DNA of 64,000 nucleotides from Arthrinium phaeospermum (taxonomy: Eukaryota; Ascomycota; Sordariomycetes; Amphisphaeriales; Apiosporaceae): positions 1,488,001-1,552,000 of the forward strand of contig QYRS01000009.1 in NCBI GenBank assembly GCA_006503535.1, written 5' to 3'. The translations under genes were made by a program, and so were the position numbers. Numbering within the stretch: the first letter of the stretch is position 1; every line of letters begins with the position of its first letter. Of the stretch, positions 3,466 through 48,337 are shown piece by piece. The notes under the pieces were generated by a model, which did no database searches, had not been told where the DNA came from, and saw only the letters and a program-made list of their open reading frames with translations.

Positions 3466-6400
3466 ATGTCTGCAGAGCCGGAGCAGCGAGACTCGCCGCC
3501 AGCTCAACCTTCCCGTCTCAGGCCCGTCACATGTCTCAGCACGGAGCCACATGACATAAGCGACCATTTGCTCCACTACCTGGGCTGCCTCGAGTATGAA
3601 GAACGCGGGACACTATTCAATGAGAACACCAAGATTTGGAAAGAGGAGATCGCTCACTTTGAGAAATCAGATGCCGCTTTGAAGGCTTCGGATCCTCGAC
3701 CAAAGCTTTCGCCCAAAGAACGCGTGGGAAAGAAGCGAGAGGCCTGGAGGGAAGACTGCGAGAAAGAGCTCACCCGCGTCAAGATCTTACGCAAGGCGAT
3801 CCGGGCCGACAAGCATGACAAGCATCTAGATGAGTCGATCAGAGCCAGCTCTAAAACGTGGATGGAATACAAAGGCCACCATGAGCGGCTCCCAACCAAC
3901 GACACCGCCGAAGCTTCAGAATACAACTTGGAGAGAGATATCAGTGTCCCTATCATCCAATATCAGCTGAGGGGTGAAGACAATGGAGCGGCCAGCAACA
4001 CGGAAGATCGAGGCTGGGGCCAGGAGAAAAGCCCGGAGAAGCGGGTCTGGGGTGACTTCCCAGATCAGAAAACGAAACTGGATGTACTGGAAAAAGACCC
4101 GGAAGTCAATTTGTTGCACTACGATAGGCACCCTGATCGAATTAGGTACTTTCATTTGCCTTCGAACAATATGATGGTAAGTCGTCTCTACCACGTGTGA
4201 GGTTTATTCTTGACTAACGAGCTTGGGTGCTAGTGGGCCGAGGTAACTCAACCAACTGTGCTACTCATACCCAGTACACTTTCTTATTGATCTGGTACAG
4301 AATGCATTGTCTCGCTACTTTGGGGAAACCCGCCCCGATCGTCACGTTATACGGCGTGAACTAAAGAGGGCCCCAAGAACTCGAGCCTACATGCTGCTTC
4401 GTGATCCCTTCTGGCGAAGTCAACTCCACGGAGGGGAAAGAGCACCGCCACATGCCAGGCATATGGAGCCTATGTGCATCACAGCATCATCAGGTAAGGT
4501 CGTGGCGGCTGCCGTTTCCTGTAGTAGTGGCTAACCAGTATTCAGAAGTCAACACAACGGGCGCTTCCCCTGAAAACATGGTGTTATTTGTAAGTCTTGC
4601 ATCCCGTCCCAGTGCTCTTGACATGTCCACTGAAGCGCTTAGATGCCATTCCTTCATTGGGAGACGAGCCGACAACGCGAGAAGTCCGCGCACACAATCA
4701 TGCAGACTGTGGAGCGTCGCAAACGAGCGGAGAAGGCGCATCTGGATAACATGAAAAAGAATCGTATTGAGGCTCGTAGCGACCATGGCCCGGCCCGTTT
4801 GCGACCTCACATCCCAGAAACGCCCAGAAGAAGCGGTACCAGGATTGATTCCATACAGGCCATTATTCCCCAAGAATACTTCAAAGATGCATTGCCTTTC
4901 GAAGCCAACCACAGACTCAAGCTCAAGAATCCACTCGGTCAATACCTCCTCGACGCCGCCAGGCTGTTCGAAGGAATGTCAAATTACCGCGACAAGAAGC
5001 TTCTTGAAAGGTACCTCGGTGGTGATACGCCTCTCCACCCTCGCCGGACGCTGGACCAGGCATACCATTGGAAGCTCACCACTACCAAGAAGCGAGACCG
5101 AGACCAGGTAGTCTACAGGGCTACTACCATCCCTCCTGACGACTACCATATCTACCATCGGCAAGATGAGAACTGGCCCGACCACGAGGATTTCGACATA
5201 AAGAGAGACTGTGCCGAATGCAGGTCGCATATCAAGAAGGTTTCCAAGGTCGTTATGGTCGACCAACTCTGGATGTGGGTCCTGGACAAGAAGACTATCA
5301 TCACATGCTTCCCCAAACGATATGGAGTCAATAAACACGATTCTTCTGGCGTTCACAAGTCCATCCGACGGCGGCTTGAAGCGAGCCCGCAGATAAGGAC
5401 CGTGTTCGACCTGGGTCTCATCATCTTCGACGAATGTTCAAACGTCTTTTTCGACCGGACCAGCGTCGATCCGAGCCAGCCCGCAGTCATCGACATCTTT
5501 TCAAAGGCTATAGGAAACGTGGTAGGTACCTCCGTAAACTTCTTCCCGTAGAGACGAGACAATCAACACGGTGCTGACCCCAATGACCAAAAGATGCACC
5601 AGCAAACGGCGTCATTCGACCGTCTTTGGAAGTGGACTGAAATCGCTAGCAAGGCGTACCGTTCCAAGAATTTGGTCTCGTCACATTTCGAGATCCCACT
5701 GCTGGACATCAACCCCGAGGGGAAACTACAGCGCGAGATAAAGGACATTATAGAAGAGCTCGACATCATGCTCCACATCACCACGTGCCACCGTCGGATT
5801 CTGAAGCAGTACAAGGACAACGCGGAAAATCTGCTCGACCCGTACAGTGAACACGGACGGGCACACTCGAAGATGGACACCAGCCTTTCTCTACACAACA
5901 AATCCCTCCGCAAGCAAAGGGAAATCACTGAGCTGATCAAGCAGCAACGAGAAAAAACTGAGCAAGCAAAGAAACAGTCGAACGAGGTAAAATTGGAGGA
6001 GAGCCGACTGGAAGAGAAGAAGTTGTTGAAGAAAAAGGAGGAGTGCAACGAACGTCAAGATTACACTTGGTTCATGCTCAAAGCCGATGAGCTAAGTGAG
6101 CTCGTCGAGGCCCGTATCGCGGAATTATACGAGCTACGAGCGAGCGCTGTTAGCACAGCCGACAGTGTAAGCTGAAGCCCATTCTACACGCAACACATCT
6201 TACCCTAAATATGGTAATCGATCGATACACTGAATAACTAACAATTGTCGTCACAGGTCAAGGACCTACTCGAGCTGAAACAACAACAGGCGGGAGTCGT
6301 ACAGGCATGGCAAGCCGTGAACCAAGCTTCCGAGACCATCAAACAAGGTCGCTCCATCATGATGTTTACCTTGGTAACCATCGTATTCGTAAGCCACTAA

Positions 6401-7026
6401 CAGCTTTCACCCTCTCTCCTTACATATTGACAGAAAATAGCTTCCCCTGTCATTCATGTCCAGTATTTTCGGCATGAACAACCAAGAGTTCTCCGGTAGC
6501 GGTTGGCCCATCCGGGAAGAGCTACGACTAATGTGTAAGTACCCGAGAAATCCTTCTTCATTTCCCCCTTACACCCGCGCTAAGGAATCTAGTTCCCATA
6601 TCGGCCGCCGTCATCATCGTAAGTCTCTTTTGGGCCTATAGCAACTGGTCTCGCGTCGCGCTGTGGGCCATCTACAAGCGAGCGACGACGTGGCTCGTCG
6701 TGAAAACGAAAGTCTTTGACCTCTGGCTCCAATTCAGCAAGCCAGAGAAAGACATGATTGAAGATGCGGATAGGGTGACGGAGAAGTTGTTCAACCGGGC
6801 GAGGAAGGAAAGATACAGACGGAATCGAGAAACCAGGGATGCAAAGGAGAAGAAAAAAGAAGAGAAGAAAGCCGAGGAGGATAGAGCTAAGCAGGCTGCC
6901 TTGATGTTGGGCCAAACTCCCAGTCCTGGAACAGCGCCATTTCACAATCAGGGGCAAGAGAGGCGGGGATATCAGAATGGCAAAACTCCCGACGTGGAGA
7001 TGGCCATGCCCTCTCAACAAAGCTGA
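3466..7026 (+). CDS. CorA-like membrane protein of the large fungal family, nine exons
   Basis: Exons: 3466-4176, 4234-4242, 4301-4493, 4546-4589, 4643-5521, 5594-6166, 6257-6388, 6441-6534, 6593-7026. All phases close, giving 1,022 residues. The start has a good context (CGCC-ATG). The long N-terminal part is cytosolic and charged. Conserved blocks are YFHLPSNNM-WAEN, HARHMEPMC, MPFLHWET, RRTLDQAYHW, VVMVDQLWMWVLD, CFPKRYGVNK, LLDINPEGKLQREIKDIIEELDIML and a Glu/Lys coiled coil. Near the C-terminus two membrane helices (about 835-855 and 879-897) flank GMN at 858-860, the pore signature of CorA Mg2+ channels; a charged tail follows. Fungal relatives are annotated as CorA-like or ankyrin/CorA proteins. 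No ankyrin repeats are seen here. Transport activity is inferred from the GMN architecture only. The gene converges on the FAD oxidoreductase gene ending at 7186. Confidence 0.9.
4234..4242 (+). other. 9-nt micro-exon (codes Trp-Ala-Glu)
   Basis: The upstream intron 4177-4233 has GTAAGT, a branch-like CTAAC at 4213-4217 and TAG. The downstream intron 4243-4300 has GTAACT and ends TACAG. The nine bases between give WAE in phase 0. They join NNMM to NALSRYFGE, which is what the family consensus (W-x-E after the FH-P-NN block) requires. Skipping it would keep the frame but lose three conserved residues. Confidence 0.8.
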
Positions 7027-7185
7027 AGAAGCCGTTTTACCATGTCAATATAGTCACTGGTAAAAGATTCTGTTACTTCATGTCAATGTTGGATAAAAAT
7101 AATATTATATCGTTTGAAATATATAATTGGCCTATGCACCAAATATTTTGGGGGATGTGCATTTCCAAAATTGGTAAGAGAGCTC

Positions 7186-8928
7186 TCACATCGAGATTTT
7201 GAAACCCGTCTGTCTCAAGTTCTGGAAGACACCGTCTGGATCATACCGCTTCGAAACCTCCCGCAGAAACTCGACCGACTTCTGGCCGTATCTAGCAATA
7301 GGATCCTCCGAATAATCCGCGTAATTCAGATATTTCCAGCCCCAGTTCATCCCCAGCTCTGTGGCGTGCTCGTCCATATCCCGTTGAAACGCATGACCAA
7401 CACGCTCCAAAGTAGCCAAGTGAGCGGGCTCGGCCACCTGCAGCAACACGACCGAGAGCATGCCCGTGTTATTCTTGCCGGCCTTGGCGAAGTAGTTCTG
7501 CAGCCCGAGGACGCTGGGCCCGTCTCCGTTGCGAATCATGGGCGCGGTGAGCGGCTGGTACTGCAGCAGCGCCCCCACGCTCTTGTCGTTCGGGTATCCG
7601 ATCTGGTCCTTGAGCTCTTGCACGAGCTGCTCGAACCGCTTTAGGCCGTAGCGGAGGATGCGGATGTCGTTGTTGTAGGTTCCGGTGACCCATACGTCTC
7701 TATGGAGCAGTTTTCAGTGAGAGTCCACCCAAAAAGGGGGTGGTCGTGAAGAGTGGTGACATGGTCTACTCACTGAAGGCCATCCACACCGTTACCCAGC
7801 GTGGTGCGATCCAGTACGGTCCTGGACTCGAGGAAGTCGTCATAGGACCCCTCTATGGCCAGGAAGTCCCTCAGTCCCTCAGGAAACGCCTCGTTACGCA
7901 CGTTATCAAGAGAAGCCACAGCATACATCCCACCCGGCTGCTGCGTATTAGTAGGATCCCAACCGAACATAGACTCGACGGAGCAGTCCACGTGATCCTC
8001 AATCGTATCCGTAAACTTGACCGTCGCCTCCAAGACGGCCTCCGACATGTTATACGTCCAGAACCGCCCCCCGCCCCAGGTCAGCGGCTCCGGGATGGTC
8101 CGCATATCGAACCGAGTCACGAGCCCAAAGTTGGCCGACCCGCCGCGTAGCGCCAGCCAGAGGTCCGAGTGGCTGTTGCGGTTGGCGTCGACGACGGACC
8201 CGTTGGCCAGGACGACCTCGAAGTTGTCGACGTTCTGGCAGGCCCACCCGTACGCGGCCGCGTGCAGGGAGTTGCCGCCGCCCAGGAGGAAGCCGCCGAC
8301 GCCGACCAGGTTGCTGCGCGCGCCCGTCACGGTCACGCCGTGCGGGGTCAGGGTCTTGTAGACCTCGGCCCAGGTGCCGCCGGGGCGTACGGAGGCGAGT
8401 TTGGTGTTGGGGTCGTAGGTCGTGTGGTTCATGTAGCCTGGTTACGTACCGCTAGGTCAGAATGTTCTCCGACTGGGAACAGGGCCTGGGCCTCTAAGCT
8501 ATTGAACGTACCGAGGTCAATGGTAACGCCATGGTCGGTACTGCTGGATCCGGCAAACACCATGTGCCCCCCGCCTCGGATGCCAAAGGGACAGTTGTTC
8601 TCGGTTATGGTACGCATGGTCTCCGAGGCGTCCTCGGAGGTCAATGGCAGCACCATGCACCACGGTTTCAGGGCGGCATTCGCGGCGAAGTAGTCTTTGA
8701 TGCGGTCATCATAGGCAGAAGTGTTTTGGTAAAGGACCTTTTCCCCGAGGACGGGATTGCGGGAAAGAGCATCACACTGTGCATACGGATCAGCTGACAT
8801 TACGCAGCGCTCTGAGCCATCTTTAAAGTTTCGAATTGACTCACACAAAGTGTCACCGGGGTCGTCGCTGTAGACACCGCGAGAGCCAAGACAGCTCTAG
8901 CTATGGCAAAAGCTGATGCTCTTACCAT
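7186..8928 (-). CDS. secreted FAD-linked oxidoreductase (berberine-bridge-enzyme-like)
   Basis: Exons on the minus strand: 8928-8847, 8793-8512, 8437-7774, 7699-7186. These give 513 residues, a normal size for the PCMH/BBE family. Exon 1 codes a signal peptide (MVRASAFAIARAVLALAVS), so the enzyme should be secreted. IRGGGHMVF at about residue 104 carries the His that bonds FAD covalently; GVGGFLLGGG and NFGLVTRFDM follow in the FAD domain. The C-terminal YLNYAD is the BBE segment. These enzymes oxidise alcohols, sugars or secondary-metabolite intermediates using O2. The first donor is uncertain: GTGTGA at 8846 closes the frame, while the better GTGAGT two bases on needs an unusually short intron. 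The other junctions are clean. The substrate cannot be told. Confidence 0.88.
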
Positions 8929-9360: not shown

Positions 9361-11307
9361 TCATCCCGTGAAAGAAAGCACCTGAGATGTAAGCGAACTC
9401 ACCCTCACTCTCCCCGGTCTCAGCACAACTGGGACACTTGATCCCGCCAGGAGCCAGAGCTCGTCGTCAGCTTGGCAAGTATGATACGCACGTCCAGTAA
9501 ACCCGTTATCGGCCAAAACAAAGGCCCATCTGTAAGTGTAGTCCATTTGGCGATGAGTACGGTTGGCATTATATGCGCTGGATTCAATCTCTTTACTTTC
9601 TCGTGCCAGGTAATTTTGAATTATGCTGACGGGGTCAGTTTCGATTGGCTCGGAATGTTTCGCCACATCATGTAGCGCAATTGAACGACATGCTGGATAG
9701 AGCATGAGATCTTGCCAATGCGGTACCCCTTCGTGAAAGTCATCGTAACCCAGGCAGTATCGCATCACAGCGTTATTGTTCGGTAATGTCGAACAAGTCT
9801 GACACCATTGCCGGCACACTCGAATGAACTCGCGAGCTATGTCTTGTTCCCGATAAGGCTCCTTGTCGGGGTCAAATGCCAAAGCTGTGACCAAGGTGCA
9901 CATCTTCTTGCCTCGCACTGTAAGCTTGTCGGGCGAGCTCGCGGAGACATTAGCCTCTGACCTATTACTCGCACTTCGTCGTCCGAGCGAGAAGATTTGT
10001 ACCAATTTCGAATTCCATACATCCTTGATTTCTTCCTCCTGGCTTATCAGGTAGTCTGGGACCCAAGACGGTTCTCTCGGAACACCAACACGCGGCGAGT
10101 TCGTTGTGATGGGATCGAGACTGCGAGTCCCTGTTACCAGTGACTTAATAAACTCTCGAGCCACTTCCTGGATTGGCTTGGAGTAGTCTGGTTCCGGTAG
10201 CTGGATCTCTAGCTTTCGTAAAATGGAATAGATGCCATATATCTTGTCGTGTGGCAACGTTGAACCTAGATCTTTAATCGATGTGATGAATCTCAACCGC
10301 CGATCACACAAGTCAGACTCAATTCGACCCATAAAGCTATCTTTGAATATCTGAAATGGTGAGTATGGCTCTGTGCTCACTACAGACTGTGGACCGTTGT
10401 CGTATTCGCGCTTGTGTTTCACCAACGATTGTGCATCGTGGCGGAGGCAGATGCGGTTATATGTCTGATCGTCGTTTTCAAACGGTAGAAAGACCAAGGC
10501 GCAGAATTTCAAGCGTCTCCAATCACTCTGTTTAGAGCCAGATAGAAACAAACAGTTTCGTGCAAACGCAAATTCCTGTTATGTTATCAGCATGACGTTC
10601 TTGTATCCTATTACGTATCATCTGAACATGATCTCATACTTGTACTGTCCATATACGCGTAAACCAAGGATCGCATGTTAGTTCATCCAGTACCGATTGA
10701 TGTTTCTGAGCCGTTCGATCTGCGCGGGTCAACAATCAGAATGGTCCAGCACACCGTATCCCGTGGAATAAATACACTTACACACATAGCGGGTCACTTT
10801 CCCCATGGCTTTGTGCATCGTCAAACGACTTAGCATGGCAGTTAGGACGAATCCAGGGATATAAACATTCAATAACCACAGAACATATTCTGTGCCAAGT
10901 GCAATGCCCTCGGGTCCGAGCCAAACCAAAACCGTTGAGGCATTCTCGTAGATTTCGCCCATGTTCTTCACTTGAAGGTTTCGCTCGGCCTCCCTGTCCG
11001 GAGCCTGGTCGATGCAGATGGCATCAATCCACAGTGTACGCTTGCGGTAACGACGGCGCAGTTGCACCATGGCGTCGTGGCAATTGGGCGTCACGAGCAA
11101 CTCGTGCTCATCGCACAGAATTGGACGACTGCCTGCTTTGTCCCCCCATACATAGGACAGCGCCTCGTACTTCGAACGTGCGTCACGAAGCCTTAGCTGT
11201 CGGAGCTGGCATCGCAGGGGCTCGTCTCTTCTTGGAGAGGGGAACAGCGTGATTAGACGGATTGAATCGTTAGATTGGAGAGGGGTATGCTCATAGGGGC
11301 CGGCCAT
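9361..11307 (-). CDS. HET-domain (heterokaryon incompatibility) protein
   Basis: Exons: 11307-10782, 10719-10640, 10575-9361. Phases close, giving 606 residues. The HET domain is complete in the N-terminal half: YEALSYVWGD at 47-56, LWIDAICIDQ at 92-101, VLVWLG at 126-131, and after splicing FTRIWTVQEFAFAR. HET proteins trigger regulated cell death when genetically different hyphae fuse, and are often partnered with NLR or other sensor genes. The C-terminal half has no recognised domain beyond the common HET-family segment SFTG-like end. The donors are GTAAGT and GTATGA; both introns are near 60 nt. No signal peptide. It lies on the same strand as its neighbours but nothing suggests co-transcription. 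Its specificity is unknown. Confidence 0.93.
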
Positions 11308-32929: not shown

Positions 32930-33770
32930 TCATGCGTTACGCAGATGGTAAATTGCGTCATTAGAACCCGCTGAAACGTCCGATCCCGAATACTTTTCAT
33001 TATCGTCGTCAACGATACCCAGTATTTCGCGCAATTCGTTGTCAAGCCTTCCGGGAGGGACCTTGGCTCTGTCATACACCGCCCCTGCTTCCCGAAGCGT
33101 CCTCACAAGTTTTGGATCTCTACGCTGGGAGCTGAGCACGATTTGCAATGGTGTCCCGCGCACCCCACAGTCAGCGTTCACGTTGACCCCCCATGCGATC
33201 AACAACTTTGTTATGAGCAAGCGCTTCGTGAATCCTCCTATGTACCTTTCCGGACAACCGATCATGGTACAAAACAACGGTGAGCGTCCCTCTGGTAGAT
33301 TTGCATCAGCGCCGGCTTCGAGTAGGACTCGGCTGGTTGCAACGTTGTACCTAATCGCAGCGCTCGCAAGCGCCGTATTAGCCCTTCCTCCAAGGTAATC
33401 GCCCAAAATGATAATATTAGGATCCGCGCCATGTTCTAGCAACATCTCAGCAAACTGAAGCCGATTCCGGTCAGAAGCCACGATCAGGGCAGTTTTAAGA
33501 TGGCTGCAGTCTATGAGGTTTGGGTCTGCACCTCCTTTAGTGAGCAAGAGTTTCCCGATGCTCAGGCTATCTCTGAGTACGGCTGCCACCAACGCACTGC
33601 CGGAGCGTACGGATCCATGAAAATTCGCGTCAGCCCCCTGATCAAGCAACAGCTCTGCGAGCTGTTCATGGCCATCCGTGATTGCGATGCCTAACGCGGT
33701 GTTGCCGTGGACATCCTGGGCATTGGGGCTCAGGCAGCCGCTTCTTAGCCAGAGACGAACAGCGTCATGA
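32930..33770 (-). pseudogene. 3' part of disrupted NLR gene: ankyrin repeats
   Basis: Minus-strand open frame of about 280 codons, cut off at its 5' side by the retrotransposon. It reads GLHDAVRLWLRSG across the junction, then ankyrin units such as DVHGNTALGIAITDGHEQLA with ELLLDQGADAN, GSALVAAVLRDS, TALIVASDRNRLQFAEMLLE with HGADPN, and RVLLEAGADANLPEGRSPL. There are about six repeats, then a non-repeat tail ending at TAA/TAG near 32930. An in-frame ATG just inside the LTR could in theory start a truncated product, but it has no promoter of its own. Joined to 42099 after excision of the element and one target copy, the frame continues exactly (see the insertion entry). In an intact NLR these repeats would be the ligand-sensing C-terminus. 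Confidence 0.88.
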
Positions 33771-33775
33771 AGACC
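33771..33775 (+). repeat. target-site duplication, left copy (AGACC)
   Basis: AGACC directly precedes the TGTTG start of the left LTR. The same five bases follow the right LTR at 42099-42103. Five-base duplications are typical of LTR-retrotransposon integrases. Confidence 0.88.
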
Positions 33776-33898
33776 TGTTGGAGTGTAAAACATCGACTTA
33801 CATATCCTACGATATATAAATATATAAAAATAAACTTCCTCCTATATATATAGTAATAATTTTTTTAATTAATTCAATCCCTTTACTTTTTTATAACA
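33776..33898 (+). repeat. left (5') LTR
   Basis: Starts TGTTGGAGTG and ends TATAACA. It aligns along its full length with 41971-42098. Its outer end is nearly unmutated while its inner end shows C-to-T changes relative to the right copy (for example CCTTTACTTTTTT against CCTTCACCTCCTC). It contains the shared core ATCGACTTA and the TATAAATATATAAAAATA tract. Confidence 0.9.
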
Positions 33899-33913
33899 AA
33901 TTATAAGCCCGGG
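33899..33913 (+). other. primer-binding-like site (initiator tRNA-Met anticodon arm)
   Basis: AATTATAAGCCCGGG follows the left LTR directly. Allowing RIP G-to-A changes, it matches GGTTATGAGCCCGGG, the complement of the initiator tRNA-Met anticodon stem-loop. Copia and Ty5 elements are primed by such half-tRNA fragments. The match is by eye. Confidence 0.6.
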
Positions 33914-36900
33914 TAATTTATATTTAATTTATTTTTTAAATAAAAAAAAATTAATTCTATACCTTCTTATATAATAATTATTTATTTATTATATAAATAT
34001 AAAAAAACTCGTCGTTTTAATCTTTATTATATAAAAATTAAATCTTTTAATTATTATTCTTTAAAATATAAATTTAATATTAATCGATAAGTAATTTCGA
34101 TATAATATATAATTAATATCCTTTAAAATCTATATTTTTAAAATAATTAATATAATTATTATCGCTTTAAAAAAATAACGATATAAATTATCTCGCTATA
34201 TTATTTATTAATTATTAATTAAAATATTAAACGTTATAACTTATTTTATTTTATTAAATTTTTTTTTTACGAAATTTATTTTTTTTAAAAATTATAACTA
34301 TAAAACTTATAAAAATTATTAAAAATAAAAAAAAGTTTTTATTTAAAATCTCGTAAATTTTATAAATAATTTTAAAACCTTTAAAAATTATTTTAAATAT
34401 ATTATAATTTATTAAAATTAATTTTTTAACCCTCGATATAACTTATAAATATAACTTATAGTTACGATTTATATAAAAAATAATTCGTTTTCGATTTATT
34501 AATAAAATACGTTTTTTATATATTATAAAAAATTTTTTAAATTTTTTTAAATTAAATTCGGATTTTTTAAATAATTTAAATAATATTTTTTATATCTTTA
34601 TTTTCTTTTCGTTATTATTATTTTCTATTTCCCGATTTATAAAGTAATATTTTATTTATTCCTTTTAAATTCGACCTTTTTAATTATAAAATTAATATAC
34701 CTTTTTTTAAAATTTTAAAATTTAAACTTATTATTTATAATATAATTCTTTTTTTAAAATTATCTTTTAAATTAATTTTATTTAAAATAAAATTTAAAAA
34801 ACGACTTATTTTTAAATAATTATTTAAATAATCTTTTTTTAAACGATTTATCTTTTTTTTTATTTATAATCTATTAATAATTAAACTTACGATTAAAAAA
34901 TTTAAAAATAATTAATATTATATAAAATTAGGAATTAATTAAAAAAATATTTAAATTTTATAAAACCTCGAGGTTTTCGAAATAATATAAAAAGATATAA
35001 ATCGTATTAAAAATATACGATTTAAATTAATATTTCGAAAATAAAAATTAAAATAAAAAATTAAAATAAATTAAAGTTTTAATAACCTTAACCCCTATAA
35101 TAATTTTAAAAATATTTCCGATTATAAAAAAAATAATACTTTTAATAATAATAATATTATTATAATTAATACGCCTTTTACTATTATCTTTAATACCTTT
35201 ATAAATAAAAATAAAACGGTTATAAAATAATATAAACAATATTTTATTTAAATAAAAAAATAAAATAAAAATATTTAAATAATTAAAAATAAATATAATA
35301 TTAATATATTAACGTTTATCGAAAATATATAATATAATATTATTTTTAAAATATTAAAAAAGTTTTAATATAAATATTAATTAAAAAATAACTCCTCTTT
35401 TTAATATTAAATAAATAAATAAAATAACGTTTATTATAATAAATATTTTAATATTAAAAAACTTTTCGAAAAATTTTAAAAAATTTATATAAAACTTTCT
35501 TATTTAAATATAATATTAAAGTTTTTAAATCTTTATTTTATTAATAAATTTTTTATTTTACTTCCGCCTATTTTTAATATTTTTAAAACCTCCTTTTTTA
35601 AATAAATATAATTCTTTTAACTTATAAAATTAATAATACCCTAATTAATATCGAAATTTCCTTTAATAATATTATCTTTAAAATTATAAAAAAAAAATCT
35701 TCTTTAATAATTAATATTAATTCTTATAATAATATTAATTCTTATATTTCTATAATTACCTTTATTTTAACCTTAAATATTATTATTTACTTTTATTATA
35801 AAAAAAAAAGCTATAAAAAACTTAAATATTATTAAAAATACCCCTATTTTATATTTAATAATATTTAAAAAAAAAAAAATTCTAAATAAAACGAACGCTT
35901 TAAAAAAAAAATTTAATAAAAAAAAGTATATAAAAATAAACCGAATAATAAAATATTATAATACGTTAATTTCGCTTTTTAAATAATACTTATATTTATA
36001 CCTTTAAATAATATCGATAAATTTTATATTTTCTTCGCTATTTATTAAAATAATAATAATAATAATAATAAATTATTTATATTTTATATCTTTTCGATTT
36101 TTATATTTCGATTTTTTATTTTAAATATTATTTTAAATTTAATTAAAATTAATTTATAAAATAATTACTTTATAATAATTACTTTATCGATATTTATTAT
36201 AACCGATATTTTAAATAATTTATTTAAAAAATTAAAAATTATTTCTATTTATTTAAATTTTTTTTAATATATATTATATATAATTAATATAAATAATAAA
36301 GAATAAATAAATAATAATATAAATTAATAATAATTTTATATTAAAATAAATAAATATTTTAAATAATAAAGTTAAAAAAATTAAACTTTTAACGATAATA
36401 AATAATAAGTATTAAACTATTTTTTTATTATAACCCTCGATTATAATTATTTATTATTCTTTACGGTATAAAATTTAAAATAAACTCGGAGCTTGTAATA
36501 ATATTATATTTAATTATTAAAAAAAGAATTATTTATTTATATTATATAAATTTAAAATTTATTAGAAATTATTTATATCGAATAATAAAATTTTTAAAAT
36601 TAACGTATATAAATATCGATTTTATATAAATTTTTAAAAAAAGTTTTCGAAAATAAATATAAATTTTCGTAATAAACGCTCTTTAAAATTTATAATTAAT
36701 TTCTCTTTTTTATTATATATATATATATACGTTATTATTTATTACTTTAATTTTTTATATATTATTAAATATATATAATTATTTAAATTTTAATATTTAT
36801 TTATATATATAATAAATATTAATATTAATAATAATATATTATACGCGTTTATAAAAAATATTTTTAATAATTTCGAAGAAATTATTTTATTAATTATACG

Positions 36901-39900
36901 TTATAACGCTTTAAAGCCGAAATATTTCGTTAAATTTATTAATTCGTTAAAATTAAAATACCTCGATATCGTTAAAACTATTAATAATATAATATTTTAA
37001 AAATCGAAATAAGAAATAATTTTATATTTTTATTTCTTTTTTATCGTTTAATAAAAAATAAAAGCGAAAAAAAAATCGAAAGAAACGATAATCGGTTTTT
37101 TTACGATTTTGATAACGAATATCGCATTTTTATAAAATTAAAAAAAACTATATAAATATAAAAAAAAAGGTCGCGTTAATTCTTAATCGTTATTTAAAAA
37201 TTCGCTATAACGAAATAACGAAATAAATAATATTAAAATATTAATAAATAAAAAATAAAGCGAAATTAATAAATAATTTTTTAATAAATATATTATTATC
37301 GATTTATTATTAATTAATTATTATATAATTAATTAATTTATATATTTATTTAATTTAATTTATTATATAAAAAGTAATAAATTTTATATAAATTTTTTTT
37401 TAATATAAATAATAAATTAAAAATTATTTCTATTATATAATAATAATTTTTTAAAATAAATTTTATAAATATAAATAATAAAAAAAAATTATTTAATTAA
37501 TTTATTTATATTTATTATTTAAATATTAATATTATAATATTTAAATTATATTAAAAAAAACTTTTATAATTTTAAACTTTATAAAAAAATCGATTTCGTT
37601 AATATTAATAATAAATATATTATATTAAAAAATTTAACGATTTAATTATTAATTTATTAATAAAAAAAAAAATATAAATCGTTTTATAAAATATAATATA
37701 CTTTCTTTAATTTAAATATAACTTAATTTTAATCTTTTAATTAATAAAAAAAAAAAAAATTCTTTTTCTTTTTTTATCGAATTTTTAATATTAAAAATAA
37801 ATTAACTTTTTTTTATTACTTTTTAAAATAGTTTATATTTAATTAATTAATTAAATAAAAAATACGAATTTATAACTTTTAATATAATTTTATATTCTTA
37901 TTTTATTAATTTTAATTTATAAATTTAATATAAATAATTAAGTTATTTAAATAAAAATATATTAAAAAAAATAATAAAATATTTTATTAATATTAAATTA
38001 TTAAAGCTTTATTATATATTTTAAATATATTAAAAAAAAAATAAAAAATACTTTTATAAAAAATATTAAAACGAAATATATATAATTTTAAATTATTATA
38101 TATAAATTTCACCGATATATTAAAAAACGTTATAAATTATAATAAATTTATATAATAATAATTATTATAAATAATAAATTATAAATAAAATAAATTTTTA
38201 TAATAATTAATATAAAGAAATTTTTTTAATAATTTAAATCGTTTTTTAATTATTATAAATTATTAAAATAACGTTATTAATTCGTTATTATTAATTAAAA
38301 ATTAACTTTTATAAATTATAATTTAAAAAAAATTCTTTTTAATAAAAAAATCGTTTTTATTATTTTCTTTATCGATTAATATTAATCGAATAATATAATA
38401 AAATAAACTATTAAAATATTTAAAAAAAAATTACGAATAATTTTTATTTAAATTAAATTATAACTTAATATTTAACTTAAACTTTTAAAAATTATTTATT
38501 ATATATAATAAGTTTTATAATAAAATTATCGATAAAACGTTATAAAAAACTTAATATATTATTAAACTAAATTAATAATATTTTTTAACCCTTAATATTT
38601 ATAATTATTTTAAATTTATAAAAAAATTAATACTATTTAATCGGAATATTTAATATAAATTCCTAAATTATATTAATAATAATACCTTTAATTAAATAAT
38701 TTTAATCGAAATTAAAAAAATTAAATAAATTAATAATATTATTTAAAAAAAAAATACCTATATATCGGCTTTATTCTATATAATAATAACGAATTAATTT
38801 CGAAATAACTTTATACCTTTTTAAAATTTAAAAGTTTTTAACTAAAAAAAAAATAATATAAATAATTTTTATATTATATTTAAAAACCTTTAAATTTTTT
38901 TAAATATTAATAATAACTATTTATAATAATAATAAAAATAATTCGTAATAATACGCTTCGTAATATATTATATAACGACTTTTACTTTTCGAATTATATA
39001 TAAAAATATTATATCGATTTTAAAAATTAACGATATATATAATAATAAAAAAATAAATAATAATAATATTAATATAATATAATATATATTATCGCCCTCG
39101 GCTTTAAAATTATCGATTTTTAAAATATTAACGTTTAATATACCCGTATTAGAATTTTTTCTATTATTAAAACTTAAAATCGTAATAATAAAATTAAAAA
39201 AAATCTTTTAAAAATATCTTTTATTACGCCCCGGGTTAAAAAATATCTTTTAATAATACCTTAAATTAAAACTACGTTTAAATTAATAAAATATAAAAAA
39301 ATATATTATATTTATTATTAATACTGTTTTTTTTTTAAAACCGTTAAATCGAATAACTTAAATTTATTTAATTTTTATTATAATTTTTATTATAATAATT
39401 ATAATCGTAATTAAATTAATAAAACCTTTTAATTATAAAATAATTAAATAAAACCTATAATAATTTAAATAATTTAAAACTATAAAAAATAAAATTACCT
39501 CGCTTATATAAAATAATATTTATACGCTCGATAAATTACTATTTAAATAAAAAATTTTTAATTTAAAATAAATATATAAAATAAAATTATAAAAAAAATT
39601 TTTACGGTATAAAATATAATAAGTTATATAAAATTTTAAATAAATAAAAAAAATCAATTATAATAAAACTTTTACTTTAATAATTAAATTAATAAATTAT
39701 AAAATATTTTTTATTATTATTACGATATAAGAATTATATTTAAAATAAATAAATATTAAAATAATTTTTTATATAATATTATTATTAATAAAATCTATAT
39801 AAAATAATTAATAAATTTTAATAATAATTTCGAAAAAATTTATAAATTTAATAAAACTTTATATAATTTAAAATAAGCTCCCTAAATTTAATATAAAATA

Positions 39901-41961
39901 TTAATTAATTTTTTTAAAATAATTAAATTTAAACCGTTAAATATTAATATAAAAATCTTTATTAATAAAAAAATTTATATTATTATTTATATAATAATTT
40001 ATTTATTATAAAATTTTTAATATTTAATATTAAAGCTTTAAAAATAAAATTAAATTAACGTTTTAAAATATTAAATTTTAATCTATACTTTTTTTATTTC
40101 GATATATTTATTTAACGCGAAAAAAATTAATTAATAATTTTCTTTAATTAAAAAACTTATTTTAAAAAAGTTTTAAAAAACTTTAATTTATTAAGAAATA
40201 ATAATTATATTATACTTATAAAAATAACTCTTTTTAACCCTTTTTTAAAAAACTTTAAAGCTTTATTTATAAATAAAATATAATACGTTAAAGTTATTAA
40301 ATTATTAATATATTATATTTAATATATATTTAAATATTATATACGCCGTTTTTTTTTATAATCGATTTATAATTAAACTTAATAAAATATATATAAAAAA
40401 GGTTAAAAAAATATTTCGATACTTTAACGGTATTTTAAAATATAAACTCGTTTATTAAAATAATTTATAATTATTTTTTAAATTTATTAATATCGATTAA
40501 ATTAAAAACCGAAAAATAAAACGTTTAATTATAAATTATATATTTAATATAAATAATAATATATTAATTAATATTTTAAATAATTTATAATTATTACTTT
40601 TTTTTTTATAAAATAAAAATAATAAAAAAGATTTAAATTATTAAAAAAATAATTTAATTATAATTATTATTTATCGAATTATAAATTTATTAATATAATA
40701 AATTATTACTTATTATAATTATTTATAATAATAATTAAGGAATTATTATTTTAATTAAAAATCCCGAGTTTTATATTTATATAAAATATATAAATATTTA
40801 AAATAAATAAATTAAAGAGAAATAATTATTAAAGGAAATTAATATATTTTATATTAATGAAATAATAAATAATTAATAACTTAATTAAACCGCTCTTTCA
40901 ATTTATTTTTAAAGTATTTAAAAATACTTTAAAACTTATTAAATAATAATTTTTAATTATTAAAATCGATCCTTAAATATTTTAATAATTATTAAAAAAA
41001 TTTATAACCGTTAAAACTTAATTTATATTATATTATAGCTTCGTTATATAATAATAATTTTATATATTTTATATAAAAAATACCTTATATTATAATAAAT
41101 ATAATTATTTAATATTATAAAAATAATAATAATATAATTATTTTATATTATATAATTTTATAATTTATATAAATTAATTTTTTATCGATCGACGAACGAT
41201 TTTATTATTTTTTTAATAAATTTTATTTAAAATAAACGAAATAATTTCGATTTTAATTATATTATTAATCGTTTTAAATACTTATTTTATTAATTTTTTT
41301 ATATAAACCTTTAAAATTAACGCTTTTTTTTAAAGATATAAAATATTAAAAACTTTATATATTTATTTTTACGTCGTATTATTTAATAACGCGGTTAATA
41401 AAAACGGTTAAGAATTATAAATAATTAATATTAAAAATAAAGATATATTTTTAACGTTTATTTATATATTTAAAAATAATTATATAATACGATTAATTTT
41501 ATTTAATACTTTTAAAAAATTTTAATTCGGAAATTTTTAATAAAGATATTAATATATATAAATAATAATCGAATTAATTAAGGTTAACGGCGATAAAATT
41601 TTTATATTTTAAAATATTAATATTAAAATTTTAAATTCGAACTCGATAATTCGCTTTTAAAACGCCTTAAATAATCGATAACGAACTTTTTATAAAAATT
41701 ATAAAAAAAAGCGGGAATTTAATTTTAAAATAAGCGAGATTTATATTAATAATAATTAAATATAATACGGAAAAAATTAATACTTATATTAAATAATTAA
41801 AAAAATATATTTAAATTATCGTTAAAAATATACTTTTTTAAAAGCCCGATAATTTACAAATCGTTTATTATATATATTATAAAAAAATAAAATAAAAAAT
41901 ACGAATTACGATTATAAGGAAATTAATATAAAATTAAGAATATATTATAGATATATAATTT

Positions 41962-41970
41962 AAAAGGAAA
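41962..41970 (+). other. polypurine tract
   Basis: AAAAGGAAA ends at the base before the right LTR. It is the expected plus-strand primer position and fixes the element's orientation. Confidence 0.6.
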
Positions 41971-42098
41971 TATTAAAATATAAAATATCGACTTATATAT
42001 TTTATAATATATAAATATATAAAAATAGACTTCCTCTTATATATATATAATAATAGTCTCCTCATCAATCAATTTAATCCCTTCACCTCCTCACAACA
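41971..42098 (+). repeat. right (3') LTR
   Basis: Starts TATTAAAATA (the left copy has TGTTGGAGTG, so G-to-A changes) and ends CCTCACAACA. The last 50 bases are of normal base composition, in contrast to the matching part of the left LTR. Confidence 0.9.
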
Positions 42099-42103
42099 AG
42101 ACC
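42099..42103 (+). repeat. target-site duplication, right copy (AGACC)
   Basis: Identical to 33771-33775, and immediately follows the right LTR inside the NLR coding sequence. Confidence 0.88.
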
Positions 42104-44724
42104 CATAAGGATACAATACACCCAACAATTCTGCCGCCACCACTGTGGATTATCCAAGTCCGAGTACTCGATTATAGTGCCGGGATAAATCCGACGGCTG
42201 ACCAGACTTTGTACTTGGGCCCCTGCGTGCGGAAGGCTGCAGCCCCAAGCTTGAAACGAAGAACTGCCTTCATTGGGGTCACCCAGGAATTCAAGAAGGA
42301 ACTCTGTTGTCCCTGACAAGCATCTTCCGTCAAAGAATGCGCATTGCTGATCCCATTGACGCATCCTGTCGTTCTATAGTGGGAAGGCGCTGGACTCCTT
42401 ATCCAGAGTGTGGGTGCAGTAGCGTATGTGGGTTCTTAGTATCATGTCGTTGGCTACTTCCGGGTGCCAGTGATTCTGTTCGAAATATTCTCGGACTGAT
42501 AAGTGCACGAACTGGCAGGTCCGCCTGCTGCCCTCAGACTCGGTAACTATGTGGATGAGGTTCTTGCAAGTGGCAACGATGAAATCAATATCAAACTTGA
42601 TTTCGGGCGAGAAAGAAGCATCAGATGGCTGACTGACTGCAACTTCCAGCTCCTCTGGTGTAAGTTCGGTCCATGAGCCGATGATCCACTGAAATGCTGT
42701 GTCAAAAACATGTCGTTTTCGTTTACTAATGCTGTTGTATATTTGGGCGTACGTGGCCGTCAGCCCCTCCGGCAGGGCGTCGAGGTAGTCTGAAACAAGT
42801 GTCTCGGATTCCAGTGCCAGTAAGTCGTTGATGTGCAGGGCTGCCCATTGGAACCTTTTGAAGGGTCAGTAAAACATCGAGTCAGTGACAACAGGACCAC
42901 TTACATTCCGTTACTCTTCCTCGAAAAGACCTCTTCGATCTTGTCTTTAGTTTGGTGAGACATCTTCTCTCTGCACCATTTTCTCTGTTCCATCTTCGTC
43001 TTGACGTAAGTATTGATATCTCCCTGATTATCACACGCACGGATGCTCAGGTTCTCTCCGCCTTCATATTGTTCTTTGATATCTTTATCGTCGCGGCTGG
43101 CAACAAATACCTTTACTAGCCGATGGGTCTGCCTAAAGATATGATCAATAGTCTCCATAAGCGAGTGGCGCGTCTTTTCGTCACACTCATCTAGCCCGTC
43201 GACGATGATCGTACTTTGAGAATAGATGCATGTGAGCTCCACCAGTAGTTCGCGGCATTCTTTCAGAGTGAGTCGATCAGACGCAAATCCACTGTTTTTC
43301 TTGTCCAGATACGTGGCTTTTGCGCAGGGCATAATTCTGTTGCCCTCTCTACAACATGTCAGCTGACGAATCAAGCTGCGCAATATTGAAACGGGCTCGC
43401 GTCTGTCCTCTCGGGTTCGATCGCAGAAGAAGTAAGCCACACCCTCATCTGCCAGGGCTTTGTCCAATGTGTCCTCAATGACCTTGGATGTCAGTCGGGT
43501 TTTCCCTGCACCGGCTACACTTTGTTAGTGAATCTTCCCAGACCGAGACGGAGTCAGACATACGTATGCCGTGAAGCCACAGGATTGTCGACGAGTTAAT
43601 ATTTCTCCAGTGCTCGTATTGAGAATGAGTTATCAGCCATTCGCAAGTACCGTCAAGTCTGGAAGCACTGACATTTTCCAGATCTGACTGAAATGGAACT
43701 TCTGAAATCCATTTTAGCATGTGATACCGTTCATCGTCCTTGATTGTGGTCCAAATGGACGCAACAGCGTCATCGAGGCGAGAGAACCGCTCACCCAGTA
43801 GACCCAGTAAGCCCTGGTGAGCAGCCTCATTCGAGTTTTGAGCCTCTTTGCTTGTCTCTCGATGGCAAATGTCAGCTGCAATTTCCACCTCCTTTTCCAG
43901 CCTTGTAACTTCGGAAAGCTTGTGTGTAAATCTTTCGGGTGTTGTAATGCTGACCAACGCCGTCTTCAAGCCCTGTTTGTCCGCAATCCTAGCTGATGAT
44001 ACAGCTAGGAATGAAAGTACACTTTTGAATACCGTGATGATGGAGGACTCTAGGGCCTTAGAGGACTCTTTACCCCGAGAATTCGGGCCAAGGTAGAGTT
44101 TCTCGTAGATTCGACAGTGCAAGCAAATCTTAGCTGCTTGCTCCAGCCCCAACAGTATTTCTGCTGCATGCTGATTCATGATAATTGCAGCCTAGTAGTT
44201 ATTCTTGCTGTCAGCCCCAGTTCTAGTTCGTTTTCTTCGCGGTGCTTGCCGCCTACCTGTAGCAAGAACCGAAACGCAGCCCAGGGCAGTGCCGCATGTA
44301 CTGGATCGAAGCTCACGGCAATGTCCCCAACCTCCTTAAACTTTCCTAACCAAGTCAGGATTTTGTCCGTCACGTCGCGCAGGATCCATGTACGGGTGCC
44401 AATCTGCACTTTCCACGAGTTTTCATCGGCCTCGTTTCTCCTCTTTTGGGACTCAAGCAAGAGACTGGCAAGAACATCCTCCCCGGTACAAAAAGAAGAC
44501 TGCGATCCTATACCAAATAGGTCTTGAAGTTTTTGGTCATCTTCCTGCTCCTGCTTAGTGCCTTGGGAGAGGCTCTCAAATGCTCGTTCCCAGAGCTTGA
44601 CATAGCCGTCTTGTGGTGTCGCCTGTGGCTGGCGAATAGCCAGTGGTGCGCCATGTCCCGGGGCAGTCGCATTTCCTGTGGCTCTCTTGGCGCGCTTCTT
44701 GCGCCATGAGGAAATACTGGGCAT
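42099..44724 (-). pseudogene. 5' part of disrupted NLR gene: NWD-type N-terminus and NACHT domain
   Basis: Exons: 44724-44257, 44191-43564, 43514-42905, 42854-42099 (interrupted). All junctions close in phase. The N-terminus resembles the NWD NACHT-NTPase N-terminal domain (KLWERAFESLSQ, LPWAAFRFLLQ, LEQAAKICLHCRIYEKLYLG). Splicing at 43564/43514 creates the Walker A WLHGIPGAGKT; TIIVDGLDECD is Walker B. GMFQWAALHINDLL and FVHLSVREYFEQ are typical post-NACHT blocks. In exon 4 a TAG at 42376-42374 interrupts the frame, which otherwise reads straight through to the LTR. With the ankyrin piece the ancestral protein would be about 1,100 residues. Such NLRs sense non-self and trigger incompatibility or defence-type cell death. 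The gene is now doubly broken; a truncated NWD-NACHT product is conceivable. Confidence 0.9.
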
Positions 44725-46055: not shown

Positions 46056-48337
46056 CTACTTCAGCAAGTATTCAGCATGTGGGCATTTCTCGAATAGCCT
46101 CAACCCTCCGCCATTTGTAGGATCAGAATAGAAAACTCCGATCCGGACGTAAGCCACTGGATCGATTTCCGGGGCCGCACAAGTTACGATGCCCCATGCA
46201 TATCGCTCTTTCGTGTTTGGCGGTTCATCGTCGTCTTCCGGCTCAGTACAACTTCCGAGTAGGAGCAGGGCCAAGTCCCTTTCCCCGCTCATCTGGGCGT
46301 CCCCGTTCCCGTCTACTTCCCCATATCGGCTACCTGCCTTGTTTCCTCCCTTCTCATCGACCCAGTCTAGTTCACAATCTGCCTCATACCCCATGTGATC
46401 GTCCTTAGTTTGCCACCGTGGGGATTTCCGGTCCATCATTGTCGCGTACGGTATCGGCATGAACCGAGAGCAGACTAGCAACGAGGCATTCCGAAGTTTC
46501 CCAGTTGGGTCTAATCCATCCGGCGTGACTGAGGACCTCACATAGTTGCATTCGGACCTGTAATCCGCATAATCGTCCATGTTGAATTTGTCATACCCGA
46601 ATGAAATGAGGTCTTTCTTTCGCATCCAGCTCCAGGATGGGGCAATGTAGAGGCCGTCGACCGACCCGAAAGATGAGACGAGGTCGTCAAGGCTTCCGTA
46701 AGATGTTCCCGAAGTATTCCAAAACAGCTGACGGTGTATGTCGCGCTCCCACAGCCCCGCAAGGTATGTATCCAGTGGCAATGCTCTCTTGAATAACGAT
46801 GCGAGCCCGGAGAGGGCCGGAAGTCTGTCTGTTTCATAGCTTAACTCCCGAATGCCGTAAAGCTCCACCATGGCCATCCACTGGTCATGGTAGACACGTT
46901 CGTTGAGTCCCACCCCGTCCCGGACATACTTGTCCAGCATTGGAATGACGGGATCTCCGAATCCTGATAGCTGTAGGCTGTCCTCACTAGCGCCTTCGAC
47001 TATCACGCCTTCCGGGGTAATGATCTGGATCTTCCGTGGACCGAAGATGATCATGAGCCTGGACGAGTGGAGCTCCTGGAAACACCATCCCCTTGTCTTC
47101 CATTTGCATCCGGCAAAGTCTTCTGCGGCTGGATTACCGACATCCATAAAGCTAAACTTGGTATTGGTGTATCTCAGCGCGTATTCGCCCTGGATCGCCT
47201 TTTTGACGTTGGAACGAAAAGGAACTTGGACGGAGTGGCTGGTCCGATGCAGGAATCCCCCCAGGCAAGAGTTTGATGAAATGGGGCAAATGGTGGCTGC
47301 GGCGTTGTGGTAAATGGAACTCATCTTCTGTGACTCGCGCTCCCAATCGTCCTTGTCCCCTTGAACGATACAAACCGCGTCCACCCACAGGTACCGTATT
47401 CCCAGGGCCCTGCAGACTTTGGCGGCATCCTGAACCACTGCTGTGGTATCCGTGATGTCAAATCCGGACAGTCGCTCTACAATGCTATGTGGTTCCGTCT
47501 TGAATTGGCAGGCGGCCTCGGCCGCGTTACCCCAGCAGTAGCTCAACGCGGCATAACCCGATTCTTGGGGGCCCGGGCTACTGCTGTGTTCTGCATTTGT
47601 AAGGACGAGGCGACAACGCGAGGTATTCTCCCCATTACCCAGATCAATGAGTCTGGCTGGAAACAGGCTCTCGTCTCTAGGTTTGCCATGCTGCTGTATC
47701 AATGGTCTCTGGCTACCTATAGCTTGGCGCATCATGGCGACATTGGCTGCATCAAGCACGTCTGGGCGGGGCGATGTCTCTAGACGTAGCCAGGATTGGC
47801 AAGGGCCTGGAAGTAGGACTGTTAGTCAATGAGGGATTTGAAGCTCGATACGGAGTTTGGAGACGTACCAGGCTCTGAGTCGACGTCCAAGGAGATCTTG
47901 GACACGGATAGGGGCTGTTGGCTAGCTGCTGAGTCCACTGGCATAAACTCGATTTGCACCACCAACGCCACGAGACCTCGATCGGGATAACCGTGGAAGT
48001 TCAAGCGATAGCCGTCGACATCCAGCGTCTTCCAGACATAGGCCAGGCTGATTACTACCTGCGCCGCATCCGGGGCCTTGGCAGCCACCACTCCAGATTC
48101 CAAGAGAGACTGCCGGAGCAGTCTACAGAAGCCACAACCATGGCGGCCAGACTCGGCAAGGCGAGGGAGGTCGGGAAGCCAGTCTTCGAGGCGGTAATCG
48201 AGAGGGATATCTCGGGCGCCGTCTTCTTCATCAAACACCAGAAAGGACCGATCTGCGGTGGATGACCCGTCGAAGCCGCCGAGGCTGGCGTCGTCTAACT
48301 CGAGACATTTGCATTTTTCACAGAGAGATGTACCCAT
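46056..48337 (-). CDS. HET-domain protein, cysteine-pair N-terminus
   Basis: Exon 1 is 48337-47869 and exon 2 is 47818-46056, giving 743 residues. The intron has GTACGT, a CTAAC and CAG; phase closes. The ATG at 48337 starts MGTSLCEKCKCLELDD, and a second pair, GCGFCRLL, follows near residue 70. This N-terminal cysteine arrangement is common in fungal HET proteins. The HET domain follows: YAALSYCWGN near 245, YLWVDAVCIVQGD near 297, ATICPISS, and WKTRGWCFQELHSSRLMIIFG. The C-terminal part contains APSWSWM, also usual in the family. It is the second HET gene in the window and lies 1.3 kb downstream of the broken NLR, on the same strand. Role: cell-death effector in allorecognition; specificity unknown. 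Confidence 0.92.

What the first reader, a model, noticed from the sequence alone, without database searches (positions are those of the whole stretch)
32930..44724. NLR gene split by an LTR retrotransposon, with the frame restored exactly when the element is removed
Direct reading shows an NWD-NACHT frame ending at the right LTR and an ankyrin frame beginning at the left LTR, both on the minus strand. Removing 33776-42098 and one AGACC copy joins ATC-CTT-ATG-GGT-CT to T-CAT-GAC with no frame change, giving CILMGLHDAVRLWLRSG. This is the kind of transition from NACHT to ankyrin seen in intact NLRs. It converts two apparently separate genes into one dead sensor of about 1,100 residues. It may record loss of an incompatibility specificity in this strain.
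Basis: seen in the sequence. Interest (0 to 1): 0.9.

Follow-up and report, generated by a model that had tools for sequence, protein, structure and literature searches.

The report
Fungal immune-receptor gene split by retrotransposon
A fungus carries a broken immune-type sensor gene because a jumping element, itself later mutated beyond recognition by what looks like the fungus's own genome defence, sits inside it; this is a clear example of something already known to happen.

Summary
The split gene is real. One 1,074-aa A. marii protein matches both sides: residues 1-809 on the right, 809-1070 on the left. The single shared residue is encoded by the duplicated site. The element looks like Ty1/copia (half-tRNA-Met primer site, purine tract, sub-threshold RVT_2 match), lies antisense to the gene, and is RIP-mutated to 9% GC. 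The flanks are not.

Two corrections. The frame is in phase across the junction but not open: an in-frame TAG at 42376-42374 ends the NACHT half at 728 aa, where A. marii has tryptophan. And nothing tested here shows an incompatibility role; no same-species isolate was found. An intact HET-domain gene lies 1.3 kb upstream.

One unexpected result: lineage-specific changes against A. marii are 25:33 in the NACHT part but 22:3 in the ankyrin part, so the halves may have had different fates. One of four outgroups does not show the ankyrin skew. Transposon-inactivated NLRs are known (Podospora nwd2), so this is a new member of a known kind.

The parts
44257..44724 (-). NLR coding exon 1 (ATG at 44724)
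   Evidence: P0001 1-196 matches 44724-44182
43564..44191 (-). NLR coding exon 2
   Evidence: introns 44256-44192 and 43563-43515, GT-AG
42905..43514 (-). NLR coding exon 3: NPHP3_N/NACHT nucleotide-binding domain, P-loop across the intron
   Evidence: NPHP3_N 1.9e-39, NACHT 6.6e-7
42099..42854 (-). NLR coding exon 4, from intron 42904-42855 to the right LTR; carries the premature stop
42374..42376 (-). in-frame TAG stop; NACHT half ends at 728 aa
   Evidence: W in A. marii
42099..42103 (.). target-site duplication AGACC, right copy
41971..42098 (+). right (3') LTR, 128 bp; last ~60 bp hardly RIP-mutated
41962..41970 (+). purine run AAAAGGAAA directly before the 3' LTR (polypurine tract)
   Evidence: read from sequence
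39760..39999 (+). weak match to RVT_2 (Ty1/copia reverse transcriptase), 4 stops inside
   Evidence: 27 bits, cut-off 31.6
33899..33912 (+). primer-binding site: complement of the tRNA-Met anticodon arm, 11 of 14 identical, 3 G-to-A changes
33776..33898 (+). left (5') LTR, 123 bp
33791..33793 (-). ATG inside the LTR, in frame with the ankyrin half, 6 codons upstream of it
33771..33775 (.). target-site duplication AGACC, left copy
32930..33775 (-). NLR ankyrin half, 281 codons and stop, no internal stop
   Evidence: (Ank_2 4.4e-21)
46056..48337 (-). neighbouring gene with a HET domain, intact over the whole length of its A. marii counterpart P0241 (726 aa), two exons
   Evidence: (PF06985 4.9e-30)

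Best explanation
An autonomous-size (8.3 kb) Ty1/copia-like LTR retrotransposon, primed by a half tRNA-Met, integrated antisense into the last coding exon of a single-copy NACHT-ankyrin (NLR/STAND) gene, at the first ankyrin repeat, and duplicated 5 bp of target. RIP-type C-to-T mutation then riddled the element up to the outer parts of its LTRs and left the single-copy gene around it alone. The full-length receptor can no longer be made: the coding sequence stops at a premature TAG after the nucleotide-binding part, and the ankyrin part is cut off by 8.3 kb of AT-rich sequence. Shown: element limits, target duplication, phase, stop, homology of both sides to one protein, RIP composition. Inferred: order of events, silencing, loss of function, and that the ankyrin part has since been under less constraint than the NACHT part.
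For: One A. marii protein (P0001) matches 1-809 on the right and 809-1070 on the left, sharing exactly G809, which the duplicated AGACC encodes. Phase agrees. LTR ends, target duplication, primer site, purine tract and RVT_2 match agree on a + strand element. RIP: inner GC 0.094, (CA+TG)/(AC+GT) 0.04, against 1.1-1.7 in the flanks. The 23 mismatches between the two LTRs are all transitions, 23 of 23, beside 7 gap positions. The gene is single copy: one DNA match, best other NACHT match 38%, best other ankyrin match 34%.
Against: No empty site at DNA level was available and no same-species isolate was found (best NLR hit 79%; best HET hit 86%). The RVT_2 match is under its cut-off. A first, longer form of the primer-site pattern matched the genome once, outside any tRNA. 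The NACHT half shows no acceleration, which a gene dead as a whole for long should show. The split was not checked against reads, so an assembly error at the stop or junction is not excluded.
Confidence: 0.93

Rival explanations
1. The NACHT half lives on: the 728-aa product (N-terminal part, NACHT and the stretch behind it, without ankyrins) is still made and under selection, while the ankyrin part decays or diverges.
For: Lineage-specific changes, ours against A. marii: NACHT 25:33, ankyrin 22:3, Fisher p 2e-4. Single outgroups for the ankyrin part: P0002 31:6, P0003 23:5, P0005 21:8. Strictest count over five rows: NACHT 11:19, ankyrin 11:2. Tree branch lengths: ankyrin 0.67 ours, 0.061 A. 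marii; NACHT 0.077 and 0.12. No stop or frameshift in the first 728 codons.
Against: Outgroup P0004 gives 18:21 for the ankyrin part, no skew. The stretch between stop and LTR is not skewed (5:5), though it is short. The ankyrin half has no stop or frameshift either. Diversifying selection on the ankyrins before the insertion would give the same counts. No transcript data.
Confidence: 0.2
2. The ankyrin part diverged by selection on the recognition domain while the gene was intact; the insertion is recent and unrelated to that divergence.
For: ANK and TPR repeats of some Podospora NLRs are reported under positive diversifying selection (PMC4986451, passages). LTR differences are transitions only. 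One disabling change besides the element in 3.3 kb of coding sequence.
Against: The matching A. marii branch is slow (3 changes against 22), so the pressure would have to act in one lineage only. The LTRs are too short (123 and 128 bp) to date.
Confidence: 0.35
3. Two separate neighbouring genes (a NACHT gene and an ankyrin gene) with a retrotransposon between them.
For: The ankyrin half has an in-frame ATG six codons upstream inside the LTR, so an automatic annotation could call two genes.
Against: A single protein spans the site in A. marii and single proteins with both parts exist in A. hydei and A. rasikravindrae; the target duplication lies inside one shared codon in phase.
Confidence: 0.02
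4. Natural knock-out of an allorecognition (heterokaryon incompatibility) specificity in this strain.
For: A comparable case is known: nwd2 in Podospora het-s isolates (PMC3321046, passages).
Against: No population data. No HET domain in the NLR itself. No near-identical repeats. For A. hydei and A. rasikravindrae the listed contig lengths of NLR and HET hits differ, so linkage is not shown there. [quoted passage not shown]
Confidence: 0.07

Closest known systems
Podospora anserina nwd2 inactivated by the REPA transposon in het-s isolates (PMC3321046, passages seen)
   Same: A fungal NLR gene made non-functional in natural isolates by insertion of a transposon, with a cell-death gene next to it.
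   Different: There the repeats are WD40, the partner is het-S and several isolates were typed; here the repeats are ankyrins, the neighbour has a HET domain, the element is a copia-like retrotransposon, and one genome is known.
NWDp1-p3 pseudogenes of Podospora anserina (PMC1805685, passages seen)
   Same: NLR pseudogenes shaped by RIP and, for NWDp3, by a break next to a transposon relic; there too part of a dead gene (the WD repeats) looks different in history from the rest.
   Different: There RIP hit the NLR copies themselves; here RIP is confined to the element and the gene's halves are clean.
Apiospora marii PG991_008689 (P0001) and relatives P0002, P0003
   Same: Same protein family with NACHT and ankyrin parts; 585 of 705 aligned residues identical in the NACHT part to P0001.
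   Different: Uninterrupted proteins; P0002 and P0003 have about one ankyrin repeat more than P0001 and this gene.
Ty1/copia LTR retrotransposons with half-tRNA-Met priming
   Same: 5-bp target duplication, primer site next to the 5' LTR, purine tract, RVT_2-like stretch on the same strand.
   Different: So heavily mutated that the coding part cannot be read; RVT_2 match under cut-off.

Membership tests
Fungal NLR/STAND proteins (NACHT-ankyrin architecture) | STAND nucleotide-binding domain with P-loop | tested here: met
   NPHP3_N 136 bits (cut-off 24.8), NACHT 29.8 bits (cut-off 26.7)
Fungal NLR/STAND proteins (NACHT-ankyrin architecture) | C-terminal superstructure-forming repeats | tested here: met
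   Ank_2 75.7 bits in the left half
Fungal NLR/STAND proteins (NACHT-ankyrin architecture) | Recognisable N-terminal effector or adaptor domain | tested here: inconclusive
   NACHT_N 22 bits (cut-off 30) and DUF7708 23.9 bits (cut-off 25), both under cut-off
Fungal NLR/STAND proteins (NACHT-ankyrin architecture) | All parts in one open reading frame | tested here: not met
   Broken in this genome by the element and a TAG; continuous in P0001-P0003
Ty1/copia LTR retrotransposon | Terminal direct repeats with TG...CA ends and a short target duplication | tested here: met
   Left LTR starts TGTTGG, right LTR ends CAACA; AGACC on both sides; inner LTR ends carry transitions
Ty1/copia LTR retrotransposon | Primer-binding site complementary to a host tRNA | tested here: met
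   11 of 14 positions and 3 G-to-A differences to the tRNA-Met anticodon arm, first base directly after the LTR; 8 of 8 scanned loci of the tRNA pattern are tRNA-Met genes. That half-tRNA-Met priming is typical of copia elements is recalled
Ty1/copia LTR retrotransposon | Reverse transcriptase of the RVT_2 type | tested here: inconclusive
   27 bits at 39760-39999, cut-off 31.6
Ty1/copia LTR retrotransposon | Integrase before reverse transcriptase | not tested
   coding region too mutated; not read through
RIP-mutated repeat | Loss of CpA/TpG with gain of TpA, confined to the repeat | tested here: met
   10 CA+TG left in 8,071 bp; substrate index 0.04 inside, 1.1-1.7 outside
Heterokaryon incompatibility NLR | Repeats with high internal conservation | tested here: not met
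   no direct-repeat family of 24 nt or more in 32930-33775
Heterokaryon incompatibility NLR | Allelic polymorphism controlling fusion compatibility | not testable with these tools
   one genome only

The most novel reading that the evidence does not exclude
The insertion did not simply kill the receptor but split its fate: the NACHT half persists as a constrained 728-aa protein freed from its ankyrin sensor, next to an intact HET-domain gene that could be its partner, while the ankyrin part drifts or is re-used from the ATG that the LTR supplies.
Probability: 0.15. Interest if true: 0.6.

Novelty: new member of a known kind. Interest (0 to 1): 0.3.

Why it matters
It is a clean record of how fungal immune-receptor repertoires lose members: insertion, target duplication, RIP of the element and a secondary stop are all readable, with intact relatives at hand. 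It also warns annotators, who would call two genes here. If the unequal evolution of the halves holds on DNA data, it would be a natural test of whether an NLR core keeps a function without its sensor.

Tried and rejected
Two separate genes: rejected, one relative's protein spans the site. The stop lying in an unrecognised intron: unlikely, the alignment to A. marii runs ungapped through it. RIP leaking into the gene as cause of the stop: the change is of a kind that RIP can make, but flank indices are normal, so not claimed. Near-identical ankyrin repeats as a sign of an incompatibility gene: none found. A same-species annotated copy: the ankyrin-half search gave no close hit (best listed identity to the query about 42%, over short stretches), but that search cannot return proteins longer than 1.75 times the query. 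A bacterial-type promoter and terminator scan of the LTR gave nothing and would not apply to a fungus. Ankyrin acceleration was tested with four single outgroups; one (P0004) does not show it. The longer primer-site pattern CCCGGGCTCATAA matched once, not in a tRNA; the pattern taken from the tRNA anticodon loop then worked. Structure prediction was not used.

Full report
Where this is. The window is G000:C9:1488001-1552000 of a genome of 48,449,939 bases in 19 contigs. The closest proteins are from Apiospora: 79% for the NLR (A. marii) and 86% for its neighbour (A. marii).

The gene. On the minus strand an ATG at 44724 opens a coding sequence with three GT-AG introns (44256-44192, 43563-43515, 42904-42855) that runs for 728 codons to a TAG at 42376-42374, then 91 more codons to the right LTR edge at 42099. 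Pfam gives NPHP3_N 1.9e-39 and NACHT 6.6e-7 over their cut-offs, and NACHT_N and DUF7708 under theirs. On the other side of the element the frame 33775-32930 gives 281 ankyrin-rich residues without a stop.

One gene, not two. A. marii P0001 (1,074 aa) aligns to the 91-residue piece at 720-809 and to the ankyrin half from 809 to 1070; tblastn of P0001 against the window places 1-810 right of the element and 809-1070 left of it. The one residue claimed by both, G809, is encoded within the duplicated AGACC. A. hydei P0002 shows the same arrangement at G797, and A. rasikravindrae P0003 has the same motif at 778. The codon phase agrees on both sides.

The stop that the finding missed. The TAG lies where A. 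marii has W and the alignment is ungapped around it. So even apart from the element the frame is not open. In the flanks RIP indices are normal, 1.1-1.7, so I do not claim RIP as the cause.

The element. LTRs of 123 and 128 bp differ at 23 aligned positions, all transitions, and at 7 gap positions. Directly after the left LTR, 14 bases match the complement of the tRNA-Met anticodon arm at 11 positions, the other 3 being G-to-A; the tRNA pattern has 9 places in the genome, of which 8 were given as loci and 8 of 8 are tRNA-Met by ARAGORN. A purine run precedes the right LTR, and an RVT_2 match of 27 bits (cut-off 31.6) lies at 39760-39999 on the same strand. So the element is + strand, antisense to the gene, and most like Ty1/copia. 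The inner 8,071 bp have GC 0.094 and 10 CA+TG. The genome search found 5 RVT_2 matches, 3 over cut-off, 5 of 5 with stops inside, and 3 LTR places including this one; both counts are lower bounds.

Copy number and relatives inside the genome. The NLR is single copy: one DNA match; apart from itself the best NACHT match is 38% and the best ankyrin match 34%.

Unequal halves. Counting sites where this gene alone or A. marii alone departs from P0002 and P0003 that agree: NACHT 25:33, piece between stop and LTR 5:5, ankyrin 22:3 (binomial p 1.6e-4; Fisher NACHT against ankyrin p 2e-4). In the NACHT part no run of 25 successive informative sites has more than 12 of ours. With single outgroups the ankyrin counts are 31:6 (P0002), 23:5 (P0003), 21:8 (P0005) and 18:21 (P0004). 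Demanding that P0002, P0003 and P0004 all agree gives 11:2 for ankyrin and 11:19 for NACHT. Trees put this gene with P0001 in both parts, with ankyrin branches of 0.67 and 0.061 and NACHT branches of 0.077 and 0.12. P0004 is the result against; it may reflect exchange or parallel change in the ankyrins. The pattern fits either continued constraint on the NACHT half after the insertion or divergence of the ankyrins before it; DNA of relatives would decide.

Neighbourhood. 1.3 kb upstream, on the same strand, a HET-domain gene (PF06985 4.9e-30) is intact over all 726 residues of A. marii P0241 in two exons. P0001 and P0241 are listed with the same longest contig, 1,806,740, which suggests linkage in A. 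marii; the A. hydei and A. rasikravindrae pairs are listed with different contig lengths. HET domains execute cell death in several incompatibility systems and fungal NLRs are often clustered with partner genes (PMC12881547, passages), but partnership here is inference.

Known or new. In Podospora, nwd2 is inactivated by the transposon REPA in the het-s isolates analysed (PMC3321046, passages), and NLR pseudogenes broken by RIP or next to a transposon relic are described (PMC1805685, passages). So the kind is known. Four text searches for such a case or for RIP in Apiospora listed no paper on this gene; the library lacks most subscription journals. The incompatibility reading is not supported by anything tested: 10% of fungal NLR ankyrin domains have high internal conservation (PMC4986451, passages) and this one does not show it.

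Noticed in passing
33900-41970; also L036-L040, L042: RIP here is very deep: GC 9% in the element, with C left mainly before G (376), T (264) and C (107) and hardly before A (10). LTR comparison shows changes at CpT and CpC too. In 6 of 8 sampled 10-kb stretches (5 chosen as AT-rich or with RVT_2 hits, 3 at arbitrary places, of which 1 had such a part) the AT-rich parts have GC 9-20%. A passage of PMC7882544 gives averages of 21-23% for large RIP regions of one genome; CpT targets are known in Botrytis, Sclerotinia and Magnaporthe (PMC4352252, passages).
   Followed up: partly
33791-33793, minus strand: The LTR supplies an ATG in frame with the ankyrin half, so a 287-aa ankyrin protein could be read from there.
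   Followed up: partly
46056-48337, minus strand; 10927-11178, minus strand: Intact HET-domain gene next to the NLR, and a second, weaker match of the same protein (34% over 95 aa) at about 11 kb.
   Followed up: partly
L022 6906-8779; L023 about 5778-8805: Two other places with LTRs of this family: one with two LTRs about 1.7 kb apart, one lacking a clear left LTR; both are AT-rich and sit against normal-GC DNA.
   Followed up: partly
L034 (G000:C7:2091257-2092249): One of four C5-DNA-methylase matches in the genome has three stops inside the match; could be introns or a broken gene. Whether any of the four is the RIP enzyme was not tested.
   Followed up: no
32930-33775: This gene and A. marii P0001 lack about one ankyrin repeat that P0002 and P0003 have (alignment), a shared change that supports their sister relation in the ankyrin part.
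   Followed up: partly
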